From contig CM076140.1 in assembly GCA_038025085.1 (NCBI GenBank), positions 22,937,501 through 23,001,500 of the forward strand: a DNA stretch of 64,000 bases. Direction: 5' to 3'. The notes below the pieces were generated by a model. It was not told the DNA's origin, ran no database searches, and worked only from the letters and a program-made list of their open reading frames with translations. Below, piece by piece: positions 23,858 through 61,179 of this stretch; within the stretch, counting starts at the first letter, position 1, and every line of letters starts with the position of its first letter. This stretch comes from Tetragonia tetragonoides. Its lineage: Eukaryota; Streptophyta; Magnoliopsida; Caryophyllales; Aizoaceae. A program made the position numbers and the translations under genes.

Positions 23858-23943
23858 GCCGCTAGCGGTGCTGGGCTGGAGATGACGGCCGCTAGCGGCG
23901 CTAGTCATAGCCGCTATCGGCACTGGCCAGAGTCGCTGGCGGC
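23858..23943 (+). promoter_or_regulatory. Palindromic CCGCTAGCGG array upstream of DUF7745-like gene A
   Basis: There are four copies of a 12-bp palindrome: GCCGCTAGCGGT (23,858), GCCGCTAGCGGC (23,888), GCCGCTATCGGC (23,910) and GTCGCTGGCGGC (23,932), with starts 30, 22 and 22 bp apart. A TATA box lies about 57 bp downstream (24,000). The same palindrome with the same 30/22-bp spacing occurs in the LTR of this element. Confidence 0.85.
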
Positions 23944-23999
23944 TCTGGCTTTGGGCCTTTTTCGTGGATTTCTGACTTCTTTTGACCCGATTCTTTGCC

Positions 24000-24007
24000 T
24001 ATAAATA
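24000..24007 (+). promoter_or_regulatory. TATA box of DUF7745-like gene A
   Basis: CCTATAAATAGGA lies about 70 bp upstream of the start codon at 24,074 and just downstream of the palindrome array. Confidence 0.7.
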
Positions 24008-24073
24008 GGATTTACGGGATGTCCAATGCCGTATCTCCTTTTCAGCTCTCTCAAATTTCCCAAAGCTTCTACC

Positions 24074-25414
24074 ATGGTGAAATCCTTTGAAAACCTGCTC
24101 GATGCCTGGTGTAAAAATATGACCATAGAAGATAAACTTGACTTGGCTCCGTACCATATCTCTACGTTATTGGCTTAAAGACCAACCAAAATTTTGTGGC
24201 CCCTCCTTCGATCTGCTCTGAATTATTAGGACCCTAACTTGCATGTTTTTCGTTTTGGTAACTCTGAATTATGCCCTCTAGTTGAAGAATTTGCTGCAAT
24301 TACTAATATGTCTGATGTTCTTCTCCCAACTATGCGTTATTTGAGGGATGGTTTTAGCAATCAGTACAGGAAATCTCTAGGTTTGACATCTGCAGAAGCC
24401 AAAAGCATGATTCTCGGTGTCGATGTGGACTTAGTTCAAATTTGTGAAAAGTTTGCTATTTCTTCTGAACAGGATGTGATATTTAGGCGTTGCCGTCGAC
24501 ATGCTTTTGTACTTTGCCTATTAAATCGCCTATTGTTTGCTAATGCAGAGTCCTCCAACTTGGGTAGAGCCTCATTGTTGCGAGTGGTGAATCAAATGGC
24601 TGAAGGGCATTCTCCTTTGCATCTGGTTGTAGGGGAAACTATTCTAGGGCTTGACAGGTCAAAAATTTCGCCTCAAGAAGCTTTTTCTGGCAGCCCCCTG
24701 CTGCTTCAAATCTGGATATGTGAGCATCTAAGGTTGATAGAATCGCCAGAGAAAATGATAGCTCGTACCCCTCGAGCCTGGTCAAAGAAAACTTTTACCG
24801 CTGCTAGCTTCTTGGTTAGAAAAAGGCTATATGATGAAAAGACCCTTGCTAAATGGGATGCCTTTTTCCATGCAGGACCTGTTATCCGATGGCATGTGAC
24901 CTGGTCGAGCTGACCTCTTTGGTGGCTTGCTGCAAATTTATCCCTCATACTACCATAGTGGGGTTGTACAGGAGTACCTTCTTTTTTCCTTCTAAGGTCA
25001 TAAGGCAATATGGATTGAAGCAGGTTATCCCTCGTCAGGACTCTACGAGACCGCCTACCTTGGCTCTGACCACCGAGTTTGCTGAGGATTGGGGAAAATA
25101 TTGGCGTAGCCTGGATCGATGGACTGTACCTCGGGTGATTGCCCCGACTCAAGTTTCTGAGAACTACTTGAACTGGCTTTCCCGCAGTGATGGAGAAGCG
25201 AGACGAGCCCTTCGTCAGAGTGGGACCAACTAAAGCCTAAGTATGACTCAAGAACAGGAAGCAAGAAAAGAAAGGAAGGGCCTTATGAGGAAGGCTATCA
25301 CGTACTGAAAAGAGGCAAGCCACCAGCTCAAGAAAGTGATCATAAGTCGTCCTCAAGCCAGGGTCCTTCAAAGAAGAACTCTTCAACGAAGCCTTCTAAA
25401 GGGAAGAACGATTA
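24074..25414 (+). pseudogene. Antisense DUF7745-like gene of element A
   Basis: It starts MVKSFENLLDAWCKNMTIED. The core contains FGNSELCPLVEEFAAI, LHLVVGETILGLDR and GSPLLLQIW, matching its counterpart in element B and the plant protein family commonly labelled DUF7745. The biochemical role is unknown; distant kinship to PMD proteins is plausible. Lesions: TAA at about 24,176, TAG at about 24,229 replacing a Trp codon, and frameshifts near 24,890 and 25,225. The Lys/Ser-rich tail ends KPSKGKND. The intron present in the element B gene at LLLQ/IW is exactly absent here (junction 24,709/24,710). Confidence 0.75.
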
Positions 25415-25499
25415 AAGTAGTTTTCTTAGAAAGCAAGTCTAGTTTTAGAAAAAAGTAATAGGAATTTGTTTAGCTTAAATGTTGGGGCACGTGACTTGG

Positions 25500-26690: not shown

Positions 26691-26699
26691 TTGCTTCTT

Positions 26700-30981: not shown

Positions 30982-32573
30982 TGTAGGTTGCCGTATTTTT
31001 CTCCCCTCTTTTCCGCGTGCCTCACCTTCGACCCTCCTTTCGGGGGGTCGGGTTTTCCGGACAGCCTGGGAGAGCGCATTGGGTGATCAATATTCGTGAA
31101 TCTTTTAGTGTATATGCACATAGAGATTTTTGTACCAAGGACATGATTAAGATTGTCGGAAGTCGCCACCAAATTTTGAGTTAATTTGGAAACCTTGGAG
31201 ATCAAGTCGATAGTCTAGAAAGACCTCAACTCAACTCCTGTGCACCCCAATCCCTATTGGGAAAATTGACTTCATAAATGAGTTCGGGGGCGTAGGTACG
31301 AGGTAGGAAGGTGTTAGGTATCCAACTCCCCCGTTAACAACAACAGCCTTTACTAATCGATTCAATATAATTATTAATGCTACGGTTCCAAATAGGGTTC
31401 AGTTTGTCCAAATTCGTAGTTTTAACTAATGGGTTTGAACAAGCATTATTAATGTGACCACTTTTAACAATTTATCAAGTTACATGCTTTTTATTACTAG
31501 ACAACGATAAATATGCTAAAAACCTGCGAGTTAGAAGACAAACAAGGTAATTCATCCACCAATTCACAAACAAAGCATAATTCAATATAAAGCAATAAAT
31601 AATAAATATGCATTCATTCATCCATTCATTAAGCTTAATACAAGCCCTATTGCCCAAAACGCGCCATGCATGTACATATCACATAAACCAAATTCATTAG
31701 TAATAATAAGCAATATAAAATTTACTGAAAACCCTCAGGCTGGATTACCTGGATGCTCACAATGAACTTATTGGGTTGTATTGCTTGAATTCATGCTCTT
31801 GATGAAGTATGAAGGTTTATTTTTGTGGTGCTAGGGCTAATCCTAAAGAAGGAGTAGAATCGGAATTTAGGGTTTATAATATGAGAGAGAATCTCCAACC
31901 TTGAGAGGAAAACTGCCAACCCCTTAGAGAGGAAAACTGCCAACCTCTTATAGAGAATCTCAAACCTCTTCAACTGAACCCTAAGGTTTGCTTATATAGC
32001 AGAGGGGGAGCTGCCATGGTTTGGCACGAAAATCCAATGGGCCTCGAATTTTGCCGTCCACGAGAAAGGGTCCAGGCGGCCAAACCGCTAGGCCGAGCAG
32101 CCAAACCGGCAGGCCAAGCGGTCAAGCCGCTTGGCAAGCGGCTTAGCCGCAAGGCAAGCGGTCAAATAGCTTGGCCTAGCGGCCACCGCTTGAGCCTAAG
32201 CGTGGCCGCTTGGACCTGGTGCGGTGTGCCTGCATAGGCGCCTGACATGATTATCGTGCGGGGGAGGCTCTTCCGAGGGGTTCCACGCGGGATTGACTGA
32301 GCTCCCTTGTTTGACCAAGGGTTGACTCATGGGTTTGGGTTCCCTTTCGGGCCCTTAGGTTCAAAGAGGCCTATCTCTCAGTTTTGGACTCCAATTGAAT
32401 TGAGTCCATCTGGTTTGGATCACCTGTACAAAAGGCTTCCACTGGTTAATTCAAATGAATTGGGCTAATCATCAGAGCAATTATTCTCGCAACCCAAGTT
32501 CGAGCAAAATCAAATCCTTTCATCATCAAGTTTTTACGGGGATTTATTATAGACACAATTTTTGGTGTCTACA
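30982..32573 (-). repeat. 3' LTR of element B
   Basis: 1,592 bp, TGTAGGTTGCCG...GGTGTCTACA. Nearly the same as the 5' copy, but the GC-rich array differs by two reciprocal ~21-bp unit changes. TATA (minus strand) at 31,993-31,998. Confidence 0.97.
32073..32212 (-). promoter_or_regulatory. AGCGG/CCGCT array in 3' LTR of B
   Basis: Repeated half-sites such as AAGCGGCTTAGCCGCAAGGC with about 20-21-bp periodicity, about 75 bp upstream of the LTR TATA box when read on the minus strand. It has a unit the 5' copy lacks and lacks one the 5' copy has. Confidence 0.8.
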
Positions 32574-32694
32574 GAAGCCCCTACTTTGGCCGAGCTCGAA
32601 TAGAACGAAGGTCAAAGTATTCCTGTGCCAATACCTGCAATAAAACAGGAAAACTGAGTGAGGTGACAATCAGTTAAAGATAAACAATCATTAA

Positions 32695-33420
32695 TTCCCC
32701 GGTTTATTCGACCGAGAGTTTGACCCTATGCTGTAGGTCAGACAATAAATATCTTCCGATTTTCAGTCGAAGGGGACCCTATGCTGTAGGTTACACAATA
32801 AACGTCCTCCAATTTTCAGTTGAATAGGACCTTATGCTGTAGGTTACACAATAAAACGCCCTCCGATTTTCAGTCGAAGGGGACCTTATGCTATAGGTTA
32901 AACAATAAAACGTCCTCCGATTTTCAGTCGAAGGGGACCTTATGCTGTAGGTTACACAATAAAATATTTTATTAGAGATAAGATAAGAGATAAAAATCCT
33001 CCGATTTTCAGTCGAAGGGTGACCCTATGTTGTAGGTCAAACAATAAACGTCCTTCAATTTTCAGTCGAAGGGGAACCCTATGCTGTAGGTTACACAATA
33101 AAAAATATTTCGTTAGAAATAATATATATAAGAGATAAGAAATCTTTCGATTTTTGGTCGAAAGGTAACCCCATGTTGTAGGTCAAACAATAAACGTCCT
33201 TCGATTTTCAGTCGAAGGGGAACCCTATGATGTAGGTTACACAATAAAAAATATTTCGTTAGAAATAATTTAAGAGATAAGAAAATTTTCGATTTTTGGT
33301 CGAGAGGTGACCCTATGCTGTAGGTCAAACAATAAACGTCCTTCGATTTTCAGTCGAAGGGCAACCCGGCCTAAGGTTACACAATAAAAATATTTCGTTA
33401 GAAATAATAAGTAGTAAAGG
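32695..33420. repeat. ~54-bp tandem array with CCTTCGA/TCGAAGG hairpins
   Basis: About a dozen units containing CCTTCGATTTTCAGTCGAAG, a 7-bp stem (CCTTCGA/TCGAAGG) around TTTTCAG, followed by CCCTATGCTGTAGGTTACAC and AATAAA. Units are 54 bp or longer where extra AAATATTTCGTTAGAAATAA blocks are added. It lies between the 3' LTR and the PMD gene of B, that is, in the 3' untranslated part of the gag-pol strand. Confidence 0.9.
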
Positions 33421-33454
33421 GAAGTAAAATGTTGCTCAGACCTTAGGCCGGGTT
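33363..33454. other. 15-bp perfect inverted repeat at array edge
   Basis: AACCCGGCCTAAGGT at 33,363-33,377 and its exact reverse complement at 33,440-33,454, separated by 62 bases. Confidence 0.8.
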
Positions 33455-33623
33455 TGAGCTCATGCCATTTGGCCAAGTATAAATGTGCAAACCTTTGGGT
33501 TTAAAGTAGTCCTGTTTTGCATAACGGACTTTGGCGCGCAAATAACTGCTATGGACCTCGTGTGGGGCCCGCTGATTTTGAACCAATGGCCCAAAGATAC
33601 GTCAGGGGTGAGAAAGTGGGCCA

Positions 33624-33762
33624 AGCGGTCAAACCGCCACGTCAAGCGGTCAAACCGCTACGTGGAGCGGTCTAGCCACTGGCTGGAGCGGCTACGCCGC
33701 TTGGCTTGCGGTCTGACTGCCAGCTGGGCGGTCTGACCGTCCACGTGGCGGTTTGATTGGCC
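33624..33762 (+). promoter_or_regulatory. AGCGG/CCGCT array upstream of PMD gene B
   Basis: Seven half-site units with GCGG starts at 33,625, 33,646, 33,667, 33,688, 33,708, 33,728 and 33,748, that is, every 20-21 bp or two helical turns. The best units read AAGCGGTCAAACCGCTACG and GAGCGGCTACGCCGCTTGG, inverted repeats of AGCGG around 5 bases. A TATA-like ATAAAAG follows at 33,788. Confidence 0.85.
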
Positions 33763-33787
33763 ACTAGGTCATTTGTGCGGTTCTGCC

Positions 33788-33794
33788 ATAAAAG
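33788..33794 (+). promoter_or_regulatory. TATA-like box of PMD gene B
   Basis: CCATAAAAGGAG, about 25 bp downstream of the array and 260 bp upstream of the start codon at 34,055. Confidence 0.55.
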
Positions 33795-34054
33795 GAGAAT
33801 GGGGTGGCCGAAATGGGTCATCTTCCCATTTCGAGCTCTCTCTTTCTCTTTCATCCATTTTTGCTCAAGTTTTTCAACCTCAATCAAAGCCCCTAGCTCC
33901 AAATCTTGAGGTTTTCTTGCTCAAATTCGTAGTAGGACTTGATTTTGCTAGTTGTTCTTGTGTTTTTGAGTGTCAAAACTCAAAATTGTGTGAATTTTTA
34001 AGTTTTGTGTGTTTCACTCAAATTTCAAAAGCTCCATTTTTTTGCTCTTCATCT

Positions 34055-37000
34055 ATGGCTCCTAAGCTTAGAGGAGGTAGGGAAAGGAAGGAGCAAGAGG
34101 TTGTTGTTCGTGAGGCCCCGAATGTTTTCACTCGGGTTTTTGTTTCCGGTATACCCCATCACCGGGTGGGTGAGAGCCGGTTAGTCTAGGATGATTTCAC
34201 TCGAAGTGATTTCCATCCTACCGATCGTTGGGAGCCCAACGATCTTGTTTTCAAGAGGAAGGATCACTTGGTTACCGTTGGTACCAAATGTCGGGTATGT
34301 CATCATTTCTTGTTCTCGCTCTTTTACACTTAGAAAATCATGTGTAGGCGAACATGGAATTTCTAGATTGAGAACTGTAGTGTAGTTAAATGTGGAAAAC
34401 CAATTTGCGTGAAATTGTTTTTCTGGTTAATTTGCGAATTCCCGTAGGATTCTTGTATTTATATGCATGTGAAGAATGAATTTGTGCGGAATTCATCTTT
34501 AATTTGTGGAAAATAAATTTGTATGAAATTTACTCTCGTTGCAATTATATATTTCTGTGATAATAAACTTGAATGAAGTTTACTTTTGCTGTGGAGGTAA
34601 ACGGTTTTTCGAGTTTATTTGTGGAAAATAAATTTCTGTGAAATTTATTCTCTTTAAAATTTACTCTCGTCATGTTGGCTTAGCTAAAATGCTAAATTTT
34701 ACGATTTGTAAAAATTTAGGACTAAACTGGAGACTGGTAGTTGTTACTAGGATCACCTAGCTAATTTTCTTTGCACTCTTTTTTTTTTGTGTGCTGTTTT
34801 AGGATGCCGACACGGCCATGCGGGGTTACGGTAGCCTCTCGAACATCGAGAAGGCCCGTAGGTACGTGACTCCTTCGGTGGACGCTATTGTGGCTCGTTG
34901 TGGCTTCAATCAGTTTTTAGCGGCCATGGCTTCTGCCGAGCGCTCCGATCGCCTATTAGTTAGAGGCCTTGCAGAGCGGTACTGGGATACTACCAGTACC
35001 TTTCATTTTCCTATGGGTGATATCATGATCACCCCTTTCGAGTTTGGTCTCATTTCTGGGCTTCCTTGCACCGGTACTCCTGTTACTTAGGGAGATGTGA
35101 GCCGGGAGGTTATGGTGGAGATGTTTGGTCTCTTTGGGACCAACTGGGATGGTAGGGAGTATGGTCGGACTGACGTCATGGTCCAGTTCTTGACCAACCC
35201 GAGGAAGCTAAAGAAGATCACAGCGGAGCAGCACGCCCGCCTTTTCTTGGCCCTTGTGCTAGCTTGTTCCGTCTTTTCGGATAAAGCTAGTAGGTATCAT
35301 GTTTGCTATTTCCCGTGCCTGCGGGATTTGGATAGAGTTGCGGAGTACAACTGGGGCCTTCCCGCATACTCTTGTCTTCTACGGTGTTTGAGGCAGTCCA
35401 GTCGCCTCAGTGGAGAGGAGGGCGCATCTCGCGTCTCCTTAGTCGGTTATTGGAAGGTTATGGAGGTAATTCCTTTTACCCTTTTTGTACTTTGTGTTTC
35501 GGCTCTTTATTAATAACTTGTGCCTAATCCATGTACTTTGCATGTCTTAGATTTGGTTTTATGAGCATTTCCCCGACCTTGCCCCTCTTCTCGAGACAGG
35601 GGATTTGTCCTTTCTAGCGATGCAGACCTGGAGGGGACGGGCTTCTTGCCCATTTACTACACTGCACGCCCTTAGGGAGGCGATATATCCCTTGACCGCT
35701 CAGGATGTAAGTAACATTGCTTTGTGCTTCTTTGGTCCTTTTATCCTTTTGTATGCTTATTCTTGCTTTTGCAGGTTGACTGGTTTCCCTGGACGGATTA
35801 CCTCCCGGGCCTATCGGATAGATTCTTGGGTGCTCGGGTGTACGACCAGAGGAGGATCCTTATTGAGGGTCCCTTTGGTTTTGAGTGGTTCTTGGGGAAG
35901 AGACTAATTTGGCAAACTTTCCCCGACCTTCCGGCTCCGAGGGTTCCTTTGGATCCTCCGATTCTATGCTTTATGTTCGTCACCTTGCCGTGGAGCAGGT
36001 GAGGGCGGCCACCATTGGGGCGAATGCCCTTGAGTATTTGCTTCCAGCTGATCCTGAGGTGGATCTCATGGTGGCTTATACTAATTTCGTTGAGGTGCGG
36101 TTATGCCCCAACTTCTCTACCGATCCGGTGAGTAATGTACTTTTGTTTCTTAACTTCGTTTGGAAATTTAGAAATGTCTCTGACATTCTAATCTTTGCAG
36201 AGTGCTTCGAGCTCTTCGGCTGTTTCTGCTTGGCTTCCTACTCCTCCTACTTTGTCGGTGAGCTATACAGGAGCGGACGGGTCTCCTCAGAATATACAAG
36301 TTCCTGAGTTTCGTGGTCCTGATGAGGAGGTTGAGGGATTGCCTCTATCTGCTGACTGCAGGGGGGTAAGTGAGAATTCATTGTTATTTGCAATGTTTCC
36401 TTTGTATTTATGCTGATTCTTTTTCTTATGTGCACAGTTCGATGCTGCTGAGACAAGGATGGGCTTTAGGGGTATGCATGCCCTTAAGACTTGGATATCC
36501 AGATTCGCGTCTCGGAGTGTATGCATGAGTCGTCGGTCCGAGGTTCGAGAGGTATGTTCATTTCAAGTAATAGTGCTTGATTTGAATTTTTGGTAGCTTT
36601 CTGACCTGGAGCTTATTTTCGCAGCCTGTTCCCGTGGTGAGGCCTCCTAGGCCTTCAGTTGTTCGTACTCCGGAGTTGGTGTCAACACCACAGCGTCCTC
36701 CTCTCAGACAGGAGAGTGTAGAGGTGGGTCAGGGGACGCCTCGGGCTAGAGTGGATACGAGGAGCTCGCCCCAAGTGCCTTCTCTTCCGCAATGGCCTGC
36801 ACCGCCTCCCTACATGGGGTATCTGGGCTATCATATGCCCATGTATCCTCCACTCCCTCCGAGGGGTTCTTGGAGTCAGGAGAGTACGGAGTATGGAGGT
36901 CATCCCGGCATGTCGGAGCCACCTCGTCATTCATTGGATCCCGCTTACTTAGCTGGTTCATTATTTGCTTTCGACCCTAGAGCTTGGGCGATGTCTCAGC

Positions 37001-37083
37001 CCGGTCCTTCAGGTGCTCCGCCATCGAGTGGACCCGGAGAGCCGTCTCAGGCGGGTCCGAGTACTGGCCAAGATGGCCAGTGA
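34055..37083 (+). pseudogene. Antisense PMD gene of element B, seven exons
   Basis: It starts MAPKLRGGRERKEQ. Exons as read: 34,055-34,287; 34,803-35,465; 35,551-35,706; 35,775-36,127; 36,201 to about 36,364; about 36,439-36,551; and 36,625-37,083, all with GT-AG junctions. Exon 2 holds the PMD core (RCGFNQFL, ERYWDTTSTFHFPMGDI, FEFGLISGLPCTG). The tail is Pro/Ser-rich and ends GPSTGQDGQ. Lesions: TAG at 34,187-34,189 and at 35,088-35,090, where the element A gene has CAG and CAA, plus a frameshift near 35,960. PMD proteins are nuclear in characterised cases. Their role inside retroelements is not established. Confidence 0.82.
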
Positions 37084-37579
37084 TATTTGCTGTAGTGCAT
37101 TTCGAACTTTTGGGCTTGTATTAAACCTGCTACAAATTATTGCATTTTATTTACGCACAAACATGTCATACAAATGCCCATATGTGAACTTTAATCAACT
37201 AATTTCCGAATGGGAAATCTCAAATCACGACATTCGGAATTTAGGATTCCCGACAATTTAGCACATTTGGGGTACCCCTTCCCCTAAAATAAAAAAAAAG
37301 TAAAGAAAAGTAAAATAGAAAAAGATAATTAAAGGGGAAATATTAATAAAGGAAATCAGAAAATAAAAGGAATAAAAGTGAACTTGATAATCAAGAAAGA
37401 AAATAAAAAGAGAATAAATAGAAAAGCGGCAAGAGCCAAAATTAAGTAAGAAAAATATAAGGGAAGGCTTCCAAAATCTGTCCAAGTGGCAATTAGGAAG
37501 GTAGAGCCCGGTCAGGCGTGGGGTCGGTTGAACCGAGGTCTCTCGCGAAAAGAGTACACCAAGCGCCTATACAGGATGA

Positions 37580-37730
37580 CCGCTAGAGCTCCTAGCGGCT
37601 GTGCTAGAGCTCTAACGGCTACCGCGTGGACAAGCGGCTATGCCGCTTGGGCTTGCAGTTTGGCCGCTTGTCCTAGCGGCTAAGCCGCTTGCTGGAGTGG
37701 TTTGGTCGCTTGTCCCAGCGGCTTAGCCGT
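37580..37730 (+). promoter_or_regulatory. AGCGG/CCGCT array upstream of DUF7745-like gene B
   Basis: It begins with a 19-bp perfect palindrome CCGCTAGAGCTCCTAGCGG (37,580-37,598). Units such as AGCGGCTATGCCGCT, AGCGGCTAAGCCGCT and AGTGGTTTGGTCGCT follow, at about 21-bp spacing (37,634, 37,655, 37,676, 37,697, 37,718). A TATA box is at 37,817. Confidence 0.85.
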
Positions 37731-37816
37731 CCAGGCTAGCTTCAAGGCTGCCTGACCTTTTTTCGTCGTTTGTCTGAATTTCCTTAAATCTTCAACGAGA
37801 ATCAAACCGTAGCCTC

Positions 37817-37822
37817 TATATA
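37817..37822 (+). promoter_or_regulatory. TATA box of DUF7745-like gene B
   Basis: CTCTATATAGTTGG, about 90 bp upstream of the start codon at 37,909 and 90 bp downstream of the array. Confidence 0.7.
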
Positions 37823-37908
37823 GTTGGGTCTCTTTCTCTTCTCTTCTTACCACTTTCTTTAATCCCTTAGAGAGAGAATTCCTTGAGGGAAAATCCTTAA
37901 TCTTAACA

Positions 37909-39461
37909 ATGGTGAACTTTGATGATGATTTTGATGCTTGGTTGGCTTCCATGACTGTAGAGGAGAGGTTAGAACTCACCCATTTTCATCTCAATGCCTT
38001 CTTTCACCTTAAACAAGTCAAGATTCTATGGGACTTTCTTATGCTTCAGCCGAGTTTTGGGACCCGAAATTCCATGTCTTCGTTTCGGTGCTCAGGAGAT
38101 GTGTCCCTTGGTGGAGGAATTCTCCGACATAATTGGCTTTCCAACCGAAAGTCCTCCTGTCGTTCCCTACTTGGGGAATGCCTTCATGGGTGATTTCCAA
38201 AGGTACCTTGGGTTGTCTTCCCGTCAAGCGGGTCAATTGCTTCATGGTGAGGACGTCGACCTTGCCAAGCTTCTGACTTTCTTCACTTCCAAGGCCCAAG
38301 GTGCGATGGACATGAGGTACAAGAAGCGTGCCTTTTTATTTTGCCTCCTCCATTGTTATTTGTTTGTTGGTGGTAATGAAGATGCTCTTATTCTCTCCGA
38401 AAAGAAGCTTACCATTAATAGGGGCAAAGCTTGCCTTCTTAGGGTGACCGAACAGATACAATGGGATAGCTCTCCTATGCACTTGGTTGTGGGAGATACA
38501 ATCCTCGCTTTAGATAGGCTTAAGAGCAATCCTCAAGAGTCCTTCAGTGGGAGCCCTTTACTCCTTCAAGTAAGTATTGTGATAAAGTCCTAATCTTTGT
38601 GGATTTAACTTTATTTGGTGAAATTCTTATCTTGTATTGACTTAAACTTTTCTTTTTGTTGTTTCTGTGTAGATATGGCTCCAAGAGAGGCTTCACTTGC
38701 TTGAGGCTCCAATAGATACTAGGAAGTTCCTCCCTAAACACTTTTCGGCGAGGCACCGAAAGTTCTCCGAGTCCTCTCGGGAAGAGTGGATAGCATATCT
38801 CTATTCCAATATCCAACCAGCTTGGTTCATCCCGTGGTGGCGTACCACCAAGATTGTGGGGTGTAGTGAGAACGTGCCCTTTACGGGGATTATTGGTTTG
38901 TATACTTTGACGTTCTTCTTGCCGAATCGCCTCCTCCGCCAATATGGCTTAAGGCAAAGGATCCCGAACGTGAGTTGTGAACCTCCTTGTCAAAGGCCCT
39001 TAACATCCTCCTTGGTGTCTAATTGGGAACGACACTAGAACCGTCGCCAAGTGTGGACTAAGCCGGACTACCCGCATTCAAATGGGTTGTCTAGCTTTTA
39101 CGAGGAGTGGATTTGGAGCGGTGACCATCAAGTCAACCAAAGGCTCCTAGAGGAAGAAAAGGAGTTGTTCAAGGCCCGCAAATATGATGAGCCAAACGGT
39201 ATAAGGATCACTCCAATGGATAGGCCCGCTAAACCTTCCAAGCCCCAAACTAAGGGTAAGGGAAAAGGTAAGGCAAAGGCCCAATCCAAGAAAATGAAGA
39301 ATCCGGCCCATTCGGCCAAGCAAGTAACTCCAAGTAGGCCCAATGATCACGAGGCTTCTTCTAGCTATGGTAGGGAAAGGTGGGCTCCAAGAGAACGAAT
39401 GGAACTTGATGAGCCTAGCGAACCCGTACAAGAGCCCGAAGTCAAAGACAAGGAGGAGTAG
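37909..39461 (+). pseudogene. Antisense DUF7745-like gene of element B, two exons
   Basis: It starts MVNFDDDFDAWLASMTVEER at 37,909. The core block GAQEMCPLVEEFSDIIGFPT is in another frame, so at least one frameshift lies at about 38,055-38,085. The central part has MHLVVGDTILALDR and SGSPLLLQ. A 103-bp intron (38,570 GTAAGT to 38,672 TGTAG) separates it from IWLQERLHLLEAPIDTRKFL. A TAG at 39,036-39,038 interrupts exon 2, which then ends with a Lys-rich, Glu-rich tail (TKGKGKGKAKAQSKKMK). The function of the family is unknown. It is convergent with integrase B, whose 3' end is 450 bp away. Confidence 0.75.
38570..38672 (+). other. Intron in DUF7745-like gene B
   Basis: CTTCAA/GTAAGT to TTTCTGTGTAG/ATATGG. 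The counterpart in element A reads CTTCAAATCTGG without interruption. Confidence 0.8.
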
Positions 39462-39906
39462 TCCACCTCTAATTGCCTAGCAAGTCTTGTCCTTTTTTGC
39501 TTAGTAGTATAATTCAAATAACGGGTTTGCATGCCCAAGTAGTGTAGCTTAGAATTGCCCTTTTATTTATTTATTATTATTGTTTTTTTTTATTCGCGCT
39601 TTATTGTTTTTTTTATTAGAGCATGTAATGGACTTTAGCCATATTAATGAAAGACTTGCTTATTTTTGCATTAATCAAATGGATCAAAACTCCCTTTAGA
39701 GATTTATTTTGCTAAAGTGGCCGGGCCCAAGTTATATGGGTTACCTACATATCCATGCGGAATCAGGCCAATGTAGTTCGTAAAACCAAATCTCTCTTTT
39801 TATTTTTTTTTATTTTTTTTATTTTTTCTGTCATGGGTCCCACGTGTACGAGTTGACCGATTTTGACTTGGACTTGGTGCCTTAGTGGGCTCTCTCAAAG
39901 ATTTAA
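39462..39906. other. Convergent 3' region of DUF7745-like gene B and pol B
   Basis: AT-rich, with poly-T runs. On the plus strand ATTAATGAAAG and ATTTATTTATT fit a 3' untranslated region. No gene seen. Confidence 0.4.
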
Positions 39907-42900
39907 CATTTATGCATAGAACCGCTTAAGTTGGTCCATATTTGTGAGTTGGGTGAACTTGTTGCCGTCTAAGTCCATTAGCTTTGCTGCTCCACCGGAT
40001 AATATTGTCTTAATAAGGTATGGGCCGGCCCAATTAGGCTTGATCTTTCCCCGAGGATCGGCCACAATTGTCTTCACCTCTTTTAGGACTAAGTCTCCTT
40101 CTTTTAGTCCTCTAGCCTTGAATCGTTGATCAAAATGCCTCGCCATCCTTGCTTGGTAGACATGACCATAATGTAGGGCATTTAGTCGTCTTTCATCTAG
40201 CAAGATTATTTGGTCATACCGGGCTTGAACCCACTCTACTTTGGGTAATTCACTTTCCAAAGCTATCCTCAAAGAGGGAAGTTCTACCTCGTCTGGGAGT
40301 ACCGCCTCCATTCCGTATACTAAAGAATAAGTTGTTGCTCCCGTTGAGGAACGAATGGTGGTTCTATATCCCCATTAGGCGAATTGTAGCTTCTCCGGCC
40401 AATCTTCGTAGTTTTCCGTCATCTTAGCTATCTTTTTTTTCACGTTTTTGTTTGTGGATTATACGGCTCCATTTGTTTGTGGCCTGTAAGGTGAAGACTG
40501 CCAATGTTGAATTTTAAACTTAGTGAAAAGCTCGGCAACATCCTTTTTGAATTGAAACCCGTGATCACTTATGACCTCGTGGGGCACCTCATATCTGGTG
40601 ATGATGTTGTCATGTATGAACTTTGCCACGTGTTTGGACGCTATCCTTGCGTACGAACGAGCTTCAACCCATTTGGTAAAGTAGTCTATGGCGACTAATA
40701 TGTATTCATGGCCTCCTTTTCCTGTGGGGGTGATTTTTCCAATGATGTCCTACCCCATGCAGAGAACGACCATGGTGAAGTGAATGTATGTAAAGGGGTA
40801 GGTGGTCTATGTTGTAAATTAGCGTGAAATTGGCAGCTGCACTTTCTCACATACTCGATGCAATCTTTTTCCATCGTATTCCAATAGTATCCTTGCCTTA
40901 GGATTTTCTTGACCAAGGTGAGTCCATTCACGTGGGGACCACATACGCTATTATGTATATCGCTCATGACTTTGATGACCTCGCGTTCTTTTAAGCACAG
41001 AAGACTTAACCCTTGTGGTGTCTTTTTATAAACTTTGCCTTGCACATGTATGTATTGTGCGGCTAGTCTTCTTAAGGCTCTTTGTGCCCTTGGTGTGGAC
41101 TGTGGAGGATAAACGCCTTTGGCGAGTAAATTGAGAATGTCGGTAAACCATTCTTCCTCTTCTTCCTCGTTGAGGCATACTTCAAGTGCATTACAAAAGG
41201 CGGGCTCGGTGCGCCTTCGAATGTGAATGGGCATGGAGATTACATCATCTGGAATATTTATCATAGAAGCCATCTTTGCTAAGGCATCTGCGAACTCGTT
41301 GTCATCTCTAGGAAGGTATGTGAAACGGACATAAGTGAAATATTTGGCTATCTTTTCAAGATATTCCTGGTAAGGTGGCAGGGATTCGCTTTTCACTTTC
41401 CATTTTTTCGAAACTTGGTTTATGATGAGAGTTGAATCTCCATATACCTTTAGATCCTTAATTTGCAGTTCTATTACCGCTTCTAGACCAATGACGCATG
41501 CTTCATATTCGGCGCCGTTGTTGGTTACCTCATGATCTAACTTGACGGCTATGGGAGTATGTGCGCCTTCGGGGCTAACTAATAATACTCCTACGCCATA
41601 ACCCTTTTGGTTTGATGCTCCGTCAAAGTATAATTGCCAAGTATTCTCCTCGACACTCATTATTGCTTCATCTGGAAAGTCATGTGTAGCATCTTCACTA
41701 GTAACTGGGTTTTCGACGAGATGTTCAGAAATGGCATGTCCTTTGATCGCCTTTTGGTGTTCAAAAGTTAGATCGAATTTTGAAAGCATGACTGTCCATC
41801 TTGCTATTCTTCCACTAAGGATGGATTTTTCGAACAAGTACTTTAACTGATTCATCCTTGACTTTATATGAACGGAATGTTGTAGCATGTCGTGTTGAAG
41901 CTTCTTGGTTGCAGTGACCAATGCGAAACACGTTTTCTCTAGGGTGGAGTATCGTGTTTCGTATTCTAGGAATTTCTTGCTAAAGTAGTATATTGCCTTT
42001 TCGTCATTCTCCACCTTTTGGGCCAACATAGCCCCCATAGCGGTTTCTGTGACTGTTAGGTATAGCATAAGTGGTTTTCCTGGAATGGGCGGAACCAGTA
42101 CGGGTGGTTCAGCTAAGTATTCCTTAATCTTGTCAAAGGCTTGCTGGCATTGATCATCTCAGGTACATTTAGTGTCCTTTTTGAGCTTCTTGAAGATGGG
42201 CTCACATGTAATAGTCAATTTGGATATGAATCGACTTATATATTGGACACGTCCTAGGAATCCTCTTGTCTCCTTTTCATTTTTGGGAGATGGCATATCC
42301 CTTATGGCTTTGATTTTGGTAGGATCGATTTCAATACCTCTTGTGCTTATGACGAATCCTAAGAGCTTGCCCGAAGTTACTCCAAACGCACACTTTTGAG
42401 GATTTAATCTCATGTTGTAGTTCTGAAGCCTGTCAAATAATTTCCTTAGAGAGGGTATATGCCCTTCTCTCTCCTTTGATTTAAAGAGCATATCGTCTAC
42501 GTACACCTCTGCTTCTTTGTGTATCATGTCATGTAGAAGGGAAGTTGCAGTTCTTTGGTATGTTGCTCCCGCGTTCTTCAACCCGAAAGGCATGACGGTG
42601 TAGCAATATGTCCCCCATTGGGTAATGAAAGTGGTTTTCTCCATATCTTCTTCAGCCATTTGTATTTGGTTATACCCTGCATAGCCGTCCATGAATGATA
42701 AGAGGGAATGTCCGGCGGTATTATCCACCAATACGTCTATATGTGGCAAAGGAAAGTCGTCCTTTGGACTTGCCTTGTTCAGATCCCTAAAGTCAACACA
42801 CATCCTTACTTTGTCATCCTTTTTTGGAACGGGACTATGTTAGCAACCCATTCTGGATATTGAGCAACCCTGATAAAACCCGCTGCGAGCTGTTTTTGCA

Positions 42901-43770
42901 CCTCCTCTTTGATTTTCAGTGCCCACTCAGGCTTCATTCTCCGAGGTTTCTGCTTTACTGGCTTTGAATCCGGATTGAGAGATATTGTATGCTGTTCTAT
43001 TTCGCGACTTATTCCCGGCATATCTTTGTAGGACCAAGCGAAAACGTCTATGTATTCTTTTAAGAGATTTATAAAGTTTTCTCGCTCTTTGGGAGTTAAC
43101 GATAAGCTTATGCGCACTTGGCGCGGCTCTTGATCCTTTGCAAGATTGATTAATTCTATTTCTTCCACAATTGAAGTCTTTTGTTCATGCTCTAACAGTG
43201 CTTTAGTTACTTCTTTGGGCAATTCTTGTTCATCTTTTGAATTATTAGCTACTAAGTAATCCAAGAAGTAAGCAGAATCAGTTATTATTTCATTGATAGG
43301 GGAAACTGAAACATCAACTAAGCCATTACTATTGGCTTTAACATCTTTCGACTTGCAAACAGAATTAAACATAGATTTGGGTGAACCACCCGACTCTACT
43401 ATATTAGACTCGTCTTCGGAATCGGACTCGGTCCGGTCGGAATCAGTGTCGGAGTCAGGCTTGGATTCTTCGGAGATTGTGATCTTGATCTTCTTTCCAT
43501 TGGCTCCTGTCCAGCTTATAGTACGTTTTCGCTTTGTGAGTTGACCCTCGTTTGGAGTGATCAACTTAGTTGGGTCAAAGTTTGCATCCTGAATTGAATT
43601 ATTGGCATTGTGGAGCTCTTCATCTTTTGGATGGCGATGCTCTTGTCCATATAGTAGACCCAAAGCATTGTTGGGTGTGTTCTCTACCCAATCAAAATTC
43701 AGCCTCCTTTCTACAGGCAAAGGAGGGATAAAGGTGATCCTTCCTTTGTTAAGAGTGTCGGATAAGGCCT
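39907..43770 (-). pseudogene. pol of element B: RT, dual RNase H, integrase
   Basis: In order on the minus strand: spacer from LPVERRLNFDWVE (43,720) to KEYIDVFAWSYKDMPG; RT with CVDFRDLNKASPKDDFPLP, FMDGYAGYNQI and the catalytic YVDDMLFKSK; a first, decayed RNase H with YFSKKFLEYETRYS; a second, archaeal-type RNase H with YFDGASNQKG, NNGAEYEACVIGLEA and VYGDSTLIINQ; and integrase with HNSVCGPHVNG, MEAVLPDEVELP and LKEGDLVLKEVKT. Dual RNase H is typical of the Tat lineage. Lesions: a single-base loss in a C run near 42,831-42,834, TGA for Trp near 42,160, frameshift near 40,750, and TAA at 40,459-40,461 in place of the catalytic Glu codon. No protease precedes RT. Confidence 0.92.
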
Positions 43771-43772
43771 TA

Positions 43773-46034
43773 TATCATGCGAACGACCCCCTCATTGACG
43801 AGGTCTTGTATCTTGCATTCCAGGTGCACACATTCGTCTGTATGGTGTCCCCTTCCTCGATGATAGATGCAAACAGCAGTATGATCCCAGTCCTTACTCT
43901 TATTTCCTGGATCTGGATCAGGTGTTGGCCCAATGGGCCCTAGAATACCTTTCCAAAACAGGTCCTGAAAGATTTGATTTGGGGTTGAAAGGATGGGAGT
44001 ATATACCCTCCTCGGCATTCGGTTATGGCACTCCTTCTCGAGATTGACGGTGTTTTTGTAGTTACATGGTTGAACTTCTATGAGATCTTGAATTCTGTGT
44101 TTCAACGCCCAACTCTCTTCAGTGTCGTGGCCTCTTCCCCTATAGTAATTGCAAGACTTACGTGGGTGCCAAGCGATCCCTGGAGAGACAGGATCGGGGG
44201 TTGGTCCCAGTGGTCGTATAATTCCAATGCTTATGAGTATCTCAAGAGTGTGAGTCAGATGGAGAGGTAGCGGGGAGAAGTTTCTTTTGGTCATATCCCT
44301 CATGGATGGGACGTGACTAAGTGGGAGACTCACGCTTGGGTGGAGGATAGAGACGGAATGCGCTTCTGCGTCCTCACTTTCTTTCCTCTTCATCTCGATG
44401 TTAGTTACTTCTTCGTCTATCTGTTCTAGACCAACAGTGATTTCCTTGACCAACTCCCCCAATGATTTCTTGGGGGTGCTGTTGGTTTTGTGAAAGTCAT
44501 CCTCCTCATCACTATCCCATATTCTGGCCACCTCTAGATGGAGGGAGTCAATCTTAAATGGTGGGACACGATGTCCAATTGGCACAATCAGGCGAGAGGG
44601 GTCTTCTCCCTCTTTTCCATTTGTAATGACGAAAACTGCGCCTAGAGGATTGGTGTTGTTATTTGGAGTGGGAACATTCTTTGGCTTGGGAATAGTCCCA
44701 TTGTCAAAAAGATCCTGGATTTTATTCTTGAGTGTCCAACACTTCTCGGTGTCATGTCCTTTTCCTCTATGGAATTTGCAATAAAGATTATGGTTCCATG
44801 ACGGGTTCCTCTTTTCGACGTCGGGATCCGGAGTGGGGCCCACGACATTGAGTTAGTCATTCTTGACAAGCTTTTCCAAAACTTTAGCATAGGTCATACC
44901 CAATGGGGTGTATTGCCTTTGCGATTTGTCGTAGACAACATTGATTTCATTAACCTTGTTCGAAGAGTTTCCCGAATTGGGGTTCTTCTTGTAGCTTGAG
45001 TTATAAGCACCTTTGTTGAAGAAGTCCTTGTTTTTCTCCTTTTTAAGTGTTTGATCATCCTCTATGAGCAATCCCACACTATTGAGTTGTGGATATGAAG
45101 TAATTGCTTTGTATTTGAGAGGATTCAAGTAAGGAGGTTGTAAGTTCTTGATGAGTTTTCGAATTTTCTCTTCCTTGGATGGACGGTCGAGCATTTCGGC
45201 CACTTTAGTTCTCCATTTCTTGACAAAATCAGTGAAGCTTTCATTTTCACCTTGCTTGATTGCTTCCAACTCTCTCATGGTGGTTGGTTGGATGACATTG
45301 TCGGCATACCTAGTGAGGAATAAAGTGGACACTTTGTTCCATTCTTGAACCTGATTGGGCTCGAGCTTGAAAAACCATGCCCAAACAGTGGGGTCCAAGG
45401 TTTGTGAGAAAAGGTGAATATAGAGGTCGGGATCTACTCCTCTTAGGCCCATTGCAGTGGTGAAAGCCCTTATGTGATCTTTTGGATCATCGGTCCCTTT
45501 GAAGATGGGGACTTCAAGCATAGAGAACTTTTGTGGGAGCTTCCCCTTGATGTGAGAGGAGTATCCTTCTGCATTGATTATGTAGTCACTTATGATCTTG
45601 TTTTGAGTTAGATCTAACTCAAGGTTCTTAATTTGAGCACTTAGCTCTTTGACCTTGTCATCTCGAGGTGGAGGATCATCCTGGTTAAGAGGGTCAGCTT
45701 CTTTGACCTTGCTCTCTATCCATGTCACACGGTTTCCCATAGTTTCCAGCATTTTCATCATTTCAGTCAACATCTCATCGGTGGTCTTAGGTGGAGGAGG
45801 GGGCATATCATCTTCGGCCATTTCAATTAAGTTAGAACAAGATGGTCGATACGGAGGGGGAGTAACAAATACTGCGTCAGGCCTAGCTTTGCTCGAAGGA
45901 GGAGATTCCAATACGAGCTTCCTAACCAGACGTTGATTACTATGATCGCGTTCCCAACTTTTCGGACCGACTGTTTTCTTCCCAATCTTGGACAGCGGAT
46001 AAGACTTAGAAAAGGAAAGACTAACAAGTTCCAC
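43773..46034 (-). pseudogene. gag of element B with three zinc knuckles
   Basis: The capsid region contains GKLPQKFSMLEVPIFKGTDD, QTLDPTVWAWFF and FTDFVKKWRTKVAEML, the retrotrans_gag type. A C-terminal part has three knuckles of the form Cx2Hx4Hx4C or its decayed version: CKFHRGKGHDTEKC, CNYYRGRGHDTEES (last Cys lost) and CIYHRGRGHHTDEC. Usual elements have one or two, so this region was repeated. An in-frame TAA at 44,849-44,851 splits the frame between capsid and first knuckle. The start could also be at MAEDDMPPPPPK (about 45,824), since the upstream codons look like leader sequence. Gag forms the particle that packages the RNA. Confidence 0.9.
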
Positions 46035-46129
46035 GAAAGAAAAGTTTTAAAACAAAGATGGGAAGTTTCTATCTAGGATGTTCTATCAACATAGTTACCC
46101 TTGGGGACTAAGTAATGGGTTTAGGTCAA

Positions 46130-46480
46130 AAGATCTCGACTCAATATAGGATAAACAAAAGATATTATACTCTTGACTAAAACGAGGGGGGAGAGATATT
46201 ATCTCGACTCAATATGGGATAAAGCAAAAGATATTATACTCTTGACTAAAAGGAGAGGGGAGAGATATTATCTCGACTCAATATGGGATAAAGCAAAAGA
46301 TATTATACTCTTAACTAAAGGAGATGGGAGAGATATTATCTCGACTCAATATGGGATAAAGAAAAAGATATTATACTCTTGACTAAAAGGAGAGGGGAGA
46401 GATATTATCTCGACTCAATATGGGATAAAGGAAAAGATATTATACTCTTGACTAACGGAGAGGGGAGAGATATTATCGAG
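46130..46480. repeat. 69-bp tandem repeat in leader of element B
   Basis: About five units of CTCGACTCAATATGGGATAA plus AGATATTATACTCTTGACTA plus a GAGAGGGGAGAGATATTAT block, with a period near 69 bp. It lies in the 5' leader between the primer-binding site and gag. Confidence 0.9.
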
Positions 46481-47164
46481 ATCTTTTGACCTAGACTCAC
46501 TACCTAAATAAAGGGAAAGAATATAGCAACCAAATCTTTCCTAAGGTAACGAGCATCATATAGAACATTCAGGGATATTATTTCCAAAAAATAAAGATTC
46601 TAGACTCGATCTTAAGACAAAATCTAGACTCAGAAAAAGAAAATATCCTAATTGGGGCCTAACCTAATATTCTATGACAACCAAAAAGACTGCGCAAAGA
46701 TTGCGTTGACATATAGGCAAACAGCAAACAACGCAATATGACATGATTATGCAAACCTAGCATGGATATGGGACTGAGTTTCAACCAAAAACATCGGTTC
46801 TAGTTCATGCAATGGGGTAGGCTTAAGGGTTTTGGTCAAAAGGTACTCATGATCAAAAATGTACAACAATCCGCGGGATGCGCGATAATCGTCGAGTCGA
46901 CGAATGCGTAGGAAGGTACATGAGGTGGGGGGATCCATGTTGCTTGGCAAAGAAGAATCGAGTGGATTCTCACCAAGGCACTTCACCACACTCCATTGGC
47001 TAAAACTGGTTTGAACTTGTAAAAACAAGTTCGGAAGTCGCGCAAGCGCAAACACATGAATGAATGCAAATTAATGATGAATGACAAGTCACAAAATAAT
47101 AAAAAGAACACTCAAGGCAGTGAACCAAGCAAAAATAATTATAATGAATCGATTTTCAAGTTAC

Positions 47165-47198
47165 ACCCTCTTAATCATCTCCCCAGTGAAGTCGGCAC
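47165..47198 (-). other. Primer-binding site of element B
   Basis: Right after the 5' LTR the minus strand reads TGCCGACTTCACTGGGGA. Element A has TGGCGACTTCACTGGGGA at the same place. This is the site where a host tRNA primes minus-strand DNA; Tat/Ogre elements typically use an Arg tRNA with a TGGCGAC-type site. B has a G-to-C change at position 3. Confidence 0.7.
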
Positions 47199-48209
47199 TG
47201 TAGGCTGCCGTAGTTTTCTCCCCTCTCTTCCGCGTGCCTCACCTTCGGCCCTCCTTTCGGGGGGTCGGGTTTTCCGGACATCTAGGGAGTGCGCGTTGGG
47301 TGATCGAATTTCATGAATCTTTTAGTGTATATGCACATAGAGATTTTTGTACCAAGCACATGATTACGTCTGTCGGAAGTCGCCACTAAATTTTGAGGTA
47401 ATTTGAAAACCTTGAAGATCAAGTCGATAGTCTAGAAAGACGTCAACTCAACTCGTGTGCACCCCAATCCCTATTGGGGAAATTGACTTCATAAATGAGT
47501 TTGGGGGCGTAGGTACGAGTTAGGGAGGTGTTAGGCACCCAACTCGTCCGTTAACAACAACGACCTTTACTAATCGATTCAATATATTTATTAATGCTAC
47601 GGTTCCAAACAGGGTTCAGTTTGTCCAAATTCGTAGTTTTGACTAATGGGTTTGAACAAGCATTATTAATGTGACCACTTTTAACAATTTATCAAGTTAC
47701 ATGCTTTTTATTGCTAGAAAACGATAAATATGCTAAAAACCTACGAGTTAGAAGACAAACAAGGTAATTCATCCACCAATTCACAAACAAAGCATAATTC
47801 AATATAAAGCAATAAATAATAAATATGCATTCATTCATCCATTCATTAGGCTTAATACAAGCCCTATGGCCCAAAACGCGCCATGCATGTACATATCACA
47901 TAAACAAAATTCGTTAGTAATAATAAGCAATATAAAATTTATTGAAAACCCTCAGATTGGATTACCTGGATGCTCACAATGAACTTATTGGGTTGTATTT
48001 CTTGAATTCATGCTCTTGATGAAGTATGACGGTTTATTTTTGTGGTGCTAGGGCTAATCCTAAAGAAGGAGTAGAATCAGAATTTAGGGTTTATAATATG
48101 AGAGAGAATCTCCAACCTTGAGAGGAAAACTGCCAACCCCTTAGAGACGAAAACTGCCAACCTCTTAGAGAGAATCTCTAACCTCTTCAACAGAACCCTA
48201 AGGTTTGCT

Positions 48210-48215
48210 TATATA
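48210..48215 (-). promoter_or_regulatory. TATA box in 5' LTR of B
   Basis: Minus strand CTATATAAGC about 75 bp downstream of the half-site array, directing transcription toward gag. Confidence 0.75.
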
Positions 48216-48290
48216 GAAGGGGGGGGGCTGCCAGGGTTTGGCACGGAAATCGAATGGGCCTCGAATTTTGCCGTCCATGAAAAAGGGTCC

Positions 48291-48429
48291 AGGCGGCCAA
48301 ACCGGCAGGCCAAGCGGTCAAGCGGCTTGGCAAGCGGCTTAGCCGCAAGGCAAGCGGTCAAACTGCTTGGCCTAGCGGCACAGCCGCTTGTCCTAGCGGC
48401 CACCGCTTGAGCCCAAGTGTGGCCGCTTG
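48291..48429 (-). promoter_or_regulatory. AGCGG/CCGCT array in 5' LTR of B
   Basis: GCGG starts at 48,293, 48,314, 48,334, 48,354, 48,375 and 48,396, that is, every 20-21 bp. Units include AAGCGGCTTAGCCGCAAGG and TAGCGGCACAGCCGCTTGT, inverted half-sites. Same design as the arrays before both antisense genes of B. Confidence 0.85.
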
Positions 48430-48790
48430 GACCTTGTGCGGTGTGCCTGCATAGGCGCCTGACATGATTTTCGTGCTGGGGAGGCTCTTTCGAGGGGGTC
48501 CACGCGGGATTGACTGAGCTCCCTTGTTTGATCAAGGGTTGACTCATGGGTTTGGGTTCCCTTTCGGGCCCATAGGTTTAAAGAGGTCTATCTCTCAGTT
48601 TTGGACTCCAATTGAATTGAGTCCAACTGGTTTGGATCACCTGTACAAAAGGCTTTCACTGGCTAATTCAAATGAACTGGGCTAATCATTAGAGCAATTA
48701 TTCTCGCAACCCAAGTTTGAGCAAAATCCAATCCTTTCATCATCGGGTTTTTACGGGGACTTATTATAGACACAATTTTTGGTGTCTACA

Positions 48791-50587: not shown

Positions 50588-50597
50588 GCTTGTCGGT

Positions 50598-51473: not shown

Positions 51474-51509
51474 AACCCCTCAATAAGTAATCCTCTTACC
51501 CTTAGGTCC

Positions 51510-54885: not shown

Positions 54886-54898
54886 CTCTGATACCATT
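54886..54898 (-). other. Primer-binding site of chromovirus C
   Basis: Directly inside the 5' LTR the minus strand reads TGGTATCAGAGCCCTAGG; TGGTATCAGAGC is the complement of the 3' end of plant initiator Met-tRNA, the usual chromovirus primer. Confidence 0.92.
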
Positions 54899-58967: not shown

Positions 58968-60222
58968 TGTGAAGTTAGGAGGGGTGAGAGGTGTGGAGAA
59001 AAAGGTACGTAGTGATGGCGAATATATTGATGGTGAGGCTGTTTGTGGTGTAGCTAAACGGGAATTTGGCTGTGTAGACGGTTGCAGACGAACTAGCATT
59101 GCCGAAGGCCGAGCCCAGCTTTTCTCAAGGTTTCCTTTCTTCTTCGTACCCCCTATCCTGAATAGGAAGCACGAAGCGCTTATTAACAAGAAAAAGACAT
59201 GAGACTCTCACCTAAGAAAAAAGAAGACCCGCACACGGAAAACATATTATCCTAAAAAAATAGATCCTTAAGCCTAAAGGCCCAAATATTTCCCTAATAT
59301 CAAAGGAAAATAAAGTCAATGAACGAAAATAGAAAAAGACGGACTACCCTATTTTTTTTATTTTCTAGACTCAAAGAAAATGGAAATGGGATAAAAATAA
59401 AATAAATAAAAAAAGAATTTCGGTCCTCATTTTTTTTTTTTCGCAAATCGGTTTTTCATCAGTTTTTTTTCGCCAATTTCGTTTGTTTTTTTTTTTTTTT
59501 TTTGCTTTTGTTTTTTTTTTTTACCGAATCTAGAATACATCAAAAAAAAAGAAATAAATAAATAGAAAAGGGAGAGGGGAAATTGGAACGACTGACTTTT
59601 TTTTTTGTTAAAAAGATCCTAAGAAATTGCTCATGACTTTTATAAAATACATCATTAGGAAAAAGACGAGTGTTCATTGAATTGAATTCTCGCACCATTT
59701 TTGGGTATTAGGAACTAGTTAAAAATAAAAGAAAAGACTCCTAGCTCGTAAGCACATGTTAGCACATAGTCACGATACTCATGCATTCAGGCAAGCATTA
59801 CAACGACATAGTTACAGGCAAACATGTGATCAGATGGGCATTACAACGACAAATGCACAACAAGCAAGCGAATGCACGAATGTGGGGTAGAGGCTTTTGG
59901 CTCCTGTGAGGTCACCACGACAAATTACAATTTCCGTTCGGGCGGATGGTCGACACATCAATTGTAATTCTTTTTCACCAACAAGAGTCGATGAGTCATG
60001 GGTGAGGAAGCATCGATTTGCACGATAGGATAACTGTATATTCCTTTAGATATACAGGTTGTCTACGACTTGCGACACAAACTTACTCGATGGTCGATAA
60101 GGGTCAAAAGATTGTGCCAAAGCACATGCAAATGATGCAATATGGAACATATTATTAAACATTTAAGCAAACTTGACTTTCGAGTCTCACCCTCTTAAAT
60201 AAATCCCCAGTGAAGTCGCCAC
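58968..60222 (-). other. Leader of element A with primer-binding site
   Basis: Next to the LTR the minus strand reads TGGCGACTTCACTGGGGA (about 60,203-60,220), the primer-binding site. The rest has homopolymer A and T runs (59,340-59,610) and no gene. Confidence 0.75.
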
Positions 60223-61019
60223 TGTAAGGACCCGGGATTTCTACGGTCACGAAGTGCGTCCTTATAGAAAATTTGTAAGCTGGGGGTTTAAATAACTTCA
60301 AGGAACTGTCGAATTAGAAAAGCTTTTGTAAAGACTTGAATTGAATAAAAACCATGAAAGAGGTCACAAATCTGCTATCGGTGTTTTATCGAAGGGACAA
60401 AATGGAAGGACAATCCGAAGGGACAACCCAATAGCGCGATAAGTGAACTGATCATGTTTTTAGAAAGACTCTCGCTCATATAGAACATATGAGTACCCAA
60501 GAATAATAGGTTCGGGGGCGAAAGTACGAGGAGGGAAGGTGTTACGCACCCAACTCGCCTGTATTATGATGGCCTCTATAAACTCAAGTTTGCTTAATAA
60601 TTAAAAGACATGATTCCCACACAAACCGGATAAACAACATAGACTTAGACTATTAATTGGTTCATCACAAGCATCACAACATTTATTATTGACCATTGTT
60701 TAGACATGCATTTGATTGATAAATTGAGCATTACAACGACTAGACATGCTTGGAAGGACAATATTTAAGAAGCAATAAAAGACGTTTACTAGCATGATAT
60801 CTACATTATGACTACTAGAAAATAAACAATTAGGCAATTAATTTAATTTGAGCCCTCAGGAGTTAGTACCTGAACTGTAGGCTATGTTTGACAAGAATAG
60901 TAAAGACAAGATCTCAAGAATAAATTTGGAAGAAAGAGGGGCAAGCTCAATGTTAATACTCCTGAGAATAGAGGTTGTCAACTGTAGACTGTGTGTTTTG
61001 AACTGAGGGAGAAGGGTTG

Positions 61020-61028
61020 TATTTATAG
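61020..61028 (-). promoter_or_regulatory. TATA box in LTR of A
   Basis: Minus strand CCTATAAATACAACCC, about 88 bp downstream of the array. Confidence 0.75.
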
Positions 61029-61115
61029 GCGCGGGAAGTAGGGCTGGATGGCTGAAGAGGAGCCCAAAATCGAATTTGGGCTGAAAAAATAGCCTGGCCT
61101 AGAAGCTTATCCAGC

Positions 61116-61179
61116 GCCGCTAGCGGCTCAAGTCAGCGCCGCTAGCGGCTTTGGATTTTATTCCAGAGCCGCTGACGGC
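61116..61179 (-). promoter_or_regulatory. Palindromic CCGCTAGCGG array in LTR of A
   Basis: GCCGCTAGCGGC at 61,116 and 61,138 and GCCGCTGACGGC at 61,168. Read in the direction of transcription the spacings are 30 then 22 bp, the same order as at 23,858-23,943 upstream of the antisense gene. Confidence 0.85.

What the first reader, a model, noticed from the sequence alone, without database searches (positions are those of the whole stretch)
23858..61179. A shared AGCGG/CCGCT promoter array links the LTR promoter and the antisense genes in two retrotransposon families
Five GC-rich arrays lie about 25-90 bp upstream of a TATA box: LTR of A (61,116-61,179, minus), DUF7745-like gene A (23,858-23,943), LTRs of B (48,291-48,429 and 32,073-32,212, minus), PMD gene B (33,624-33,762) and DUF7745-like gene B (37,580-37,730). 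Units are palindromes of the half-site AGCGG (CCGCTAGCGG in A, AGCGG-N5-CCGCT in B). In B they repeat every 20-21 bp, two helical turns. In A the 30/22-bp spacing is the same in LTR and gene. The arrays stand out from AT-rich surroundings. PMD gene A has lost its upstream region, so its array cannot be tested. Inference: one DNA-binding factor acts on all promoters of the element, on both strands. It could be the PMD or DUF7745-like protein itself, in the manner of VANC proteins of Arabidopsis VANDAL elements, which bind short motif arrays and relieve silencing.
Basis: partly seen in the sequence, partly recalled or inferred. Interest (0 to 1): 0.92.

Follow-up and report, generated by a model that had tools for sequence, protein, structure and literature searches.

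The report
Shared promoter arrays in plant retrotransposons
Two related plant jumping genes carry the same repeated DNA tag in front of each of their promoters that could be examined, and a relative of one of their proteins is predicted to fold like VANC21, which another class of plant transposon uses against silencing, so a similar self-activation system may exist in retrotransposons.

The parts
61116..61179 (-). Array in LTR of element A: CCGCTAGCGG-type palindromes, spacing 30/22
61020..61027 (-). TATA box of LTR A (CTATAAATA)
23858..23943 (+). Array of the DUF7745-like gene of A, spacing 30/22/22
24000..24007 (+). TATA box of the DUF7745-like gene of A
24074..25412 (+). DUF7745-like (PMD-superfamily) gene of A, interrupted by at least one stop and a frame change; extent approximate
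20551..23465 (+). PMD-type gene of A, broken; upstream region not preserved; extent approximate
   Evidence: sequence; matches PMD gene B
30982..48790 (-). Element B, target duplication CGAGG at 30977-30981 and 48791-48795
47199..48790 (-). 5' LTR of B
30982..32573 (-). 3' LTR of B
48291..48429 (-). Array in 5' LTR of B, 20-21-bp units
32073..32212 (-). Array in 3' LTR of B; differs from the 5' LTR copy by whole 21-bp units
33624..33762 (+). Array of the PMD gene of B
34055..37080 (+). PMD gene of B, several exons, broken; extent approximate
37580..37730 (+). Array of the DUF7745-like gene of B
37909..39458 (+). DUF7745-like gene of B, with a frame change and a gap of about 100 bp absent from A; extent approximate
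40695..46046 (-). gag-pol region of B: gag, RT, RNase H, additional RNase H-like domain, integrase zinc-binding domain

Best explanation
The arrays are clustered binding sites for a DNA-binding protein made by the element itself, most likely the DUF7745-like (PMD-superfamily) antisense gene product, possibly with the PMD gene product. The protein has a VANC-type fold. It would bind dyad half-sites AGCGG/CCGCT, about two helical turns apart, just upstream of the TATA boxes of the LTR and of the antisense genes, and so keep both strands of the element active or free of silencing, its own gene included. LTR and gene arrays of one family change together while families differ in dyad geometry, as expected if each family's protein and sites co-evolve. 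Shown: the arrays, their place, within-family similarity, unit gain and loss, genome-wide recurrence, predicted fold of a homologue. Inferred: binding, identity of the binder, activation or anti-silencing.
Confidence: 0.55

Rival explanations
1. A host transcription factor that reads a GCCGC-like site (AP2/ERF or LBD type; names recalled, no call) binds the arrays, and the element multiplied its sites at every promoter to be transcribed.
For: GCCGC is the second most shared 5-mer of the arrays; TATA-proximal clusters on both strands are typical of enhancer sites (inference).
Against: Does not predict family-specific dyad geometry or a VANC-fold protein encoded beside the arrays. The element C LTRs hold only 2 and 3 scattered sites. 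No motif library was available, so this was not tested.
Confidence: 0.25
2. The arrays are alike within an element only because one promoter segment was copied from the LTR to the antisense genes or back (template switching or conversion), and any common ancestor's factor may since have changed.
For: LTR_B and the DUF7745-gene promoter of B align over the array and some 20 bp upstream of it.
Against: Outside the arrays the promoter flanks of that pair do not align better than shuffles (upstream 14 of 200, downstream 174 of 200 reach the score). The same half-site is kept in A and B although nothing else aligns. Copying and selection are not exclusive.
Confidence: 0.12
3. [quoted passage not shown]
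For: Tandem repeats are frequent in Retand elements (PMC11963269, parts 1-3 of 5 read). Whole-unit gain and loss is seen.
Against: Arrays sit at TATA-proximal places of separate promoters on both strands. The other repeat blocks 32722-33408 and 46133-46477 contain no half-site (list). CCGCTAGCGG has no loop for a hairpin by itself.
Confidence: 0.05

Closest known systems
VANC proteins and motif arrays of VANDAL (MULE-type) DNA transposons, Arabidopsis (PMC5735166, PMC10398659: passages)
   Same: Element-encoded protein with matching predicted fold; short motif in tandem arrays in the element's own non-coding DNA; arrays gain and lose units and differ between families
   Different: Here an LTR retrotransposon; arrays TATA-proximal at LTR and antisense promoters; GC-rich dyads instead of YAGTATTAY; no detectable sequence similarity, no DUF1985 hit; binding and hypomethylation unknown
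Antisense ORFs of Retand/Grande/Ogre elements (PMC11963269 parts 1-3 of 5, PMC7264820 parts 1-2 of 3, PMC6317226 passages)
   Same: [quoted passage not shown] PMD in 57% of Ogre elements; Grande gene23 transcribed from its own promoter, nuclear product; a regulatory role already suggested
   Different: In the text seen no common array at LTR and antisense promoters and no VANC fold is reported; Retand ORFs carry TRP28 instead
PMD proteins MAIN and MAIL1 (PMC7156037, PMC5418596: passages)
   Same: PMD superfamily; 25 of 26 commonly down-regulated genes carry a promoter motif (DOWN)
   Different: Host genes that act in silencing; letters of the motif not in the text seen; direct binding unknown

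Membership tests
VANC anti-silencing system | Protein has the VANC fold | tested here: met
   [not shown]
VANC anti-silencing system | Sequence homology to VANC / DUF1985 domain | tested here: not met
   No DUF1985 hit; no VANC21 chain by phmmer or profile
VANC anti-silencing system | Short motif in tandem arrays in the element's own non-coding regions, with unit gain and loss | tested here: met
VANC anti-silencing system | Protein binds the motif and removes methylation | not testable with these tools
   needs experiments
VANC anti-silencing system | Carried by a VANDAL/MULE DNA transposon | tested here: not met
   LTR retrotransposon with RT, RNase H, integrase and target duplication
Tat (Ogre/Retand) LTR retrotransposon | Additional RNase H between RNase H and integrase | tested here: met
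   RVT_3 between RT_RNaseH and Integrase_H2C2 in 40695-42158 of B
Tat (Ogre/Retand) LTR retrotransposon | Lineage by RT phylogeny (Ogre or Retand) | not tested
   no tree was built
PMD/DUF7745 superfamily | Profile match above curated cut-off | tested here: met
   P0001: DUF7745 44.2 bits (cut-off 26), PMD 41.2 (34.9). Window pieces alone hit PMD at 21.4-34.2 bits, below the cut-off
Host AP2/ERF or LBD target promoter | Arrays match a known host factor's binding matrix | not tested

The most novel reading that the evidence does not exclude
Gypsy retrotransposons of the Tat lineage carry their own VANC-type, family-specific activation or anti-silencing system: antisense PMD/DUF7745 proteins with a VANC fold bind dyad arrays at promoters of both strands. 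PMD, DUF7745 and VANC would be one DNA-binding superfamily, and the host silencing proteins MAIN and MAIL1 relatives of transposon anti-silencers.
Probability: 0.45. Interest if true: 0.95.

Novelty: new variant of a known kind. Interest (0 to 1): 0.86.

Why it matters
The role of antisense genes in plant LTR retrotransposons is open (PMC7264820 and PMC11963269 say so). Promoter arrays and predicted fold together point to one testable function: sequence-specific control of the element's own promoters. It would place the VANC strategy in a second, unrelated class of mobile element, give the plant mobile domain a candidate biochemical function (DNA binding), and bear on how MAIN/MAIL1 act. Two families with different site grammar in one genome offer a natural test of protein-site co-evolution.

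Tried and rejected

Literature: searches were answered. In one search, 8 papers held at least 2 of VANC / plant mobile domain / VANDAL as whole words, none of them plant mobile domain. Searches timed out; 107 was repeated; 108, the one most directly on arrays at LTR and antisense promoters, was not, so absence from print is weakly tested. Of the VANC21 structure 9lnj only the entry title was seen. Sasaki et al. 2022 (EMBO J) is not held; seen only in a reference list.

Full report
What was checked. The stated places were read and recounted. AGCGG/CCGCT occurs 86 times in 64 kb, and each of the six clusters of five or more sites is one of the stated arrays. Dinucleotide shuffles of the window (50) reach at most 4 sites per 140 bp against 9 observed; 2,000 shuffles of each array, which keep its GC-rich make-up, never reach the observed count. 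All five non-redundant arrays lie within 100 bp 5' of a TATA-like box on the right strand; random placement 0 of 20,000. Distances to TATA are 25-89 bp.

The elements. B is an LTR retrotransposon on the minus strand, 30982-48790, with LTRs 47199-48790 and 30982-32573, K2P 0.054 between them, and target duplication CGAGG on both sides. Its pol reads RT, RNase H, an RVT_3 domain and an integrase zinc-binding domain, the order given for Ogre and Retand (PMC6317226, passages). On the other strand lie a PMD gene and a DUF7745-like gene. The second belongs to the PMD superfamily as well: pieces of A and B hit PF10536 weakly, below its cut-off, and the homologue P0001, 46% identical to the A piece, passes both PF24924 and PF10536; 48 of 49 aligned proteins hit DUF7745 and 38 hit PMD at E<=1. 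A is split by element C and cut off on its left. Scored copies in the genome are 81-93% identical to A over the promoter of the DUF7745-like gene (39 copies besides the window's), 92-95% to B (39 copies); both lists are capped at 40. Matching blocks of the antisense proteins of A and B are 33-69% identical (33.0% over 100 aa, 33.7% over 89, 46% over 63, 65% over 54), the adjacent minus-strand block beside pol 62% over 225.

Array grammar. In B half-sites alternate as AGCGG-N5-CCGCT-N6, a 21-bp unit, and are phased at 10.1-10.5 bp; in A the unit is CCGCTAGCGG, 22 or 30 bp apart, without helical phasing by the same test, which has only 5-6 sites there. LTR_A and the DUF7745-gene array of A agree in 49 of 74 positions without a gap; with palindromes fixed and spacers shuffled, 0 of 300 reach this. 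LTR_B and the DUF7745-gene array of B align at 76.7% over 133 bp in the same promoter orientation, beginning some 20 bp upstream of the array; the flanks outside the array do not align better than shuffles. Because the units are dyads, two pairs score higher in reverse orientation (LTR_A with the A gene 50 against 46; LTR_B with PMD_B 56 against 32). The six cross-family pairs stay below the maximum of their shuffles, though two reach a nominal 7 of 200; for the stretch downstream of the arrays one cross-family pair (A gene with PMD_B) reaches a nominal 1 of 200. The half-site is what the families share; its arrangement is family-specific.

Genome copies. The window lies in a 753-Mb genome of 27 contigs. 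I fetched about 9.9 kb around 20 of the 39 other scored copies of the B gene promoter, the best-scoring ones, so the sample leans to copies like the window's. Where both flanks were found, the array is present at 17 of 17 LTRs, 17 of 17 PMD promoters and 20 of 20 DUF7745-gene promoters, with 4-11, 2-7 and 7-11 exact half-sites; flanks were missing for 3 LTRs and 3 PMD promoters. Lengths step by 20-21 bp in LTR (99-161, one at 107 off the step) and PMD (101-182); the DUF7745-gene array is 156 bp in 19 and 157 in 1. Of 55 clusters of three or more sites in these stretches, 54 are the promoters (17 LTR, 17 PMD, 20 gene) and one, in L034, is not. These are copies of one family, so they show persistence, not independent origin. 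Column test on 30 copies: half-site CpG columns carry 19 singletons over 22 columns but no variant shared by three or more copies, against 22 shared variants over 66 other CpG columns, p 0.0011. Against this, non-CpG half-site columns are not conserved beyond spacers (1 shared variant over 33 against 0 over 88; mean divergence 0.034 against 0.017), and recurrent mutation was not modelled; I give the test little weight. The A-type double palindrome occurs at 743 places, its reversed control at none; the 37 spacers printed, all on contig C1, fall into 30 distinct ones. Of three scored gene copies of A on C1, two have such a place 4,945 and 4,974 bp upstream, one has none within 15 kb; whether that place is LTR or PMD promoter is not known.

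Interpretation. VANC21 binds YAGTATTAY motifs in tandem arrays of its own element, and VANC induces loss of methylation (PMC5735166, passages). A retrotransposon-encoded relative with arrays at its promoters is the simplest joint account of fold, arrays, within-family concert and between-family difference. Which antisense protein binds, whether it activates or relieves silencing, and whether a host factor takes part are open. That transposons may use PMD proteins against silencing is already in print as speculation (PMC5418596 for MULE-captured PMD; PMC8616336; passages); the arrays and the fold link were not found in the searches listed under Tried and rejected, one of which failed.

Limits. 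One script step used majority letters of a proviral alignment in memory.

Noticed in passing
27788-57502: Element C, another LTR retrotransposon (direct repeats of about 2.6 kb, 90% identical; RVP_2, RT and integrase domains), lies between the halves of A and contains B; its LTRs have no AGCGG cluster.
   Followed up: partly
38573-38672: The DUF7745-like gene of B has a gap of about 100 bp (intron-like) at a point where the gene of A runs on without one.
   Followed up: partly
37580-37730: Array length of the DUF7745-like gene is fixed (156-157 bp in 20 of 20 copies) while LTR and PMD arrays of the same copies vary by whole units; unexplained.
   Followed up: partly
32722-33408 and 46133-46477: Other tandem repeats in B, 54-bp and 69-bp units, without the half-site.
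   Followed up: no
22040-22311: 133-bp tandem duplication (95% identical) inside the PMD-type gene of A.
   Followed up: no
19580-20380: MITE-like insertion (by reading; partial inverted match at 17144-17332, 73%) just upstream of PMD gene A.
   Followed up: partly
G000 contig C1 (outside the window): Neighbouring A-type double palindromes recur at about 17.6-18.2 kb (3 pairs) and 7.1-8.2 kb (3 pairs) among the 50 places listed, perhaps distances within whole elements.
   Followed up: partly
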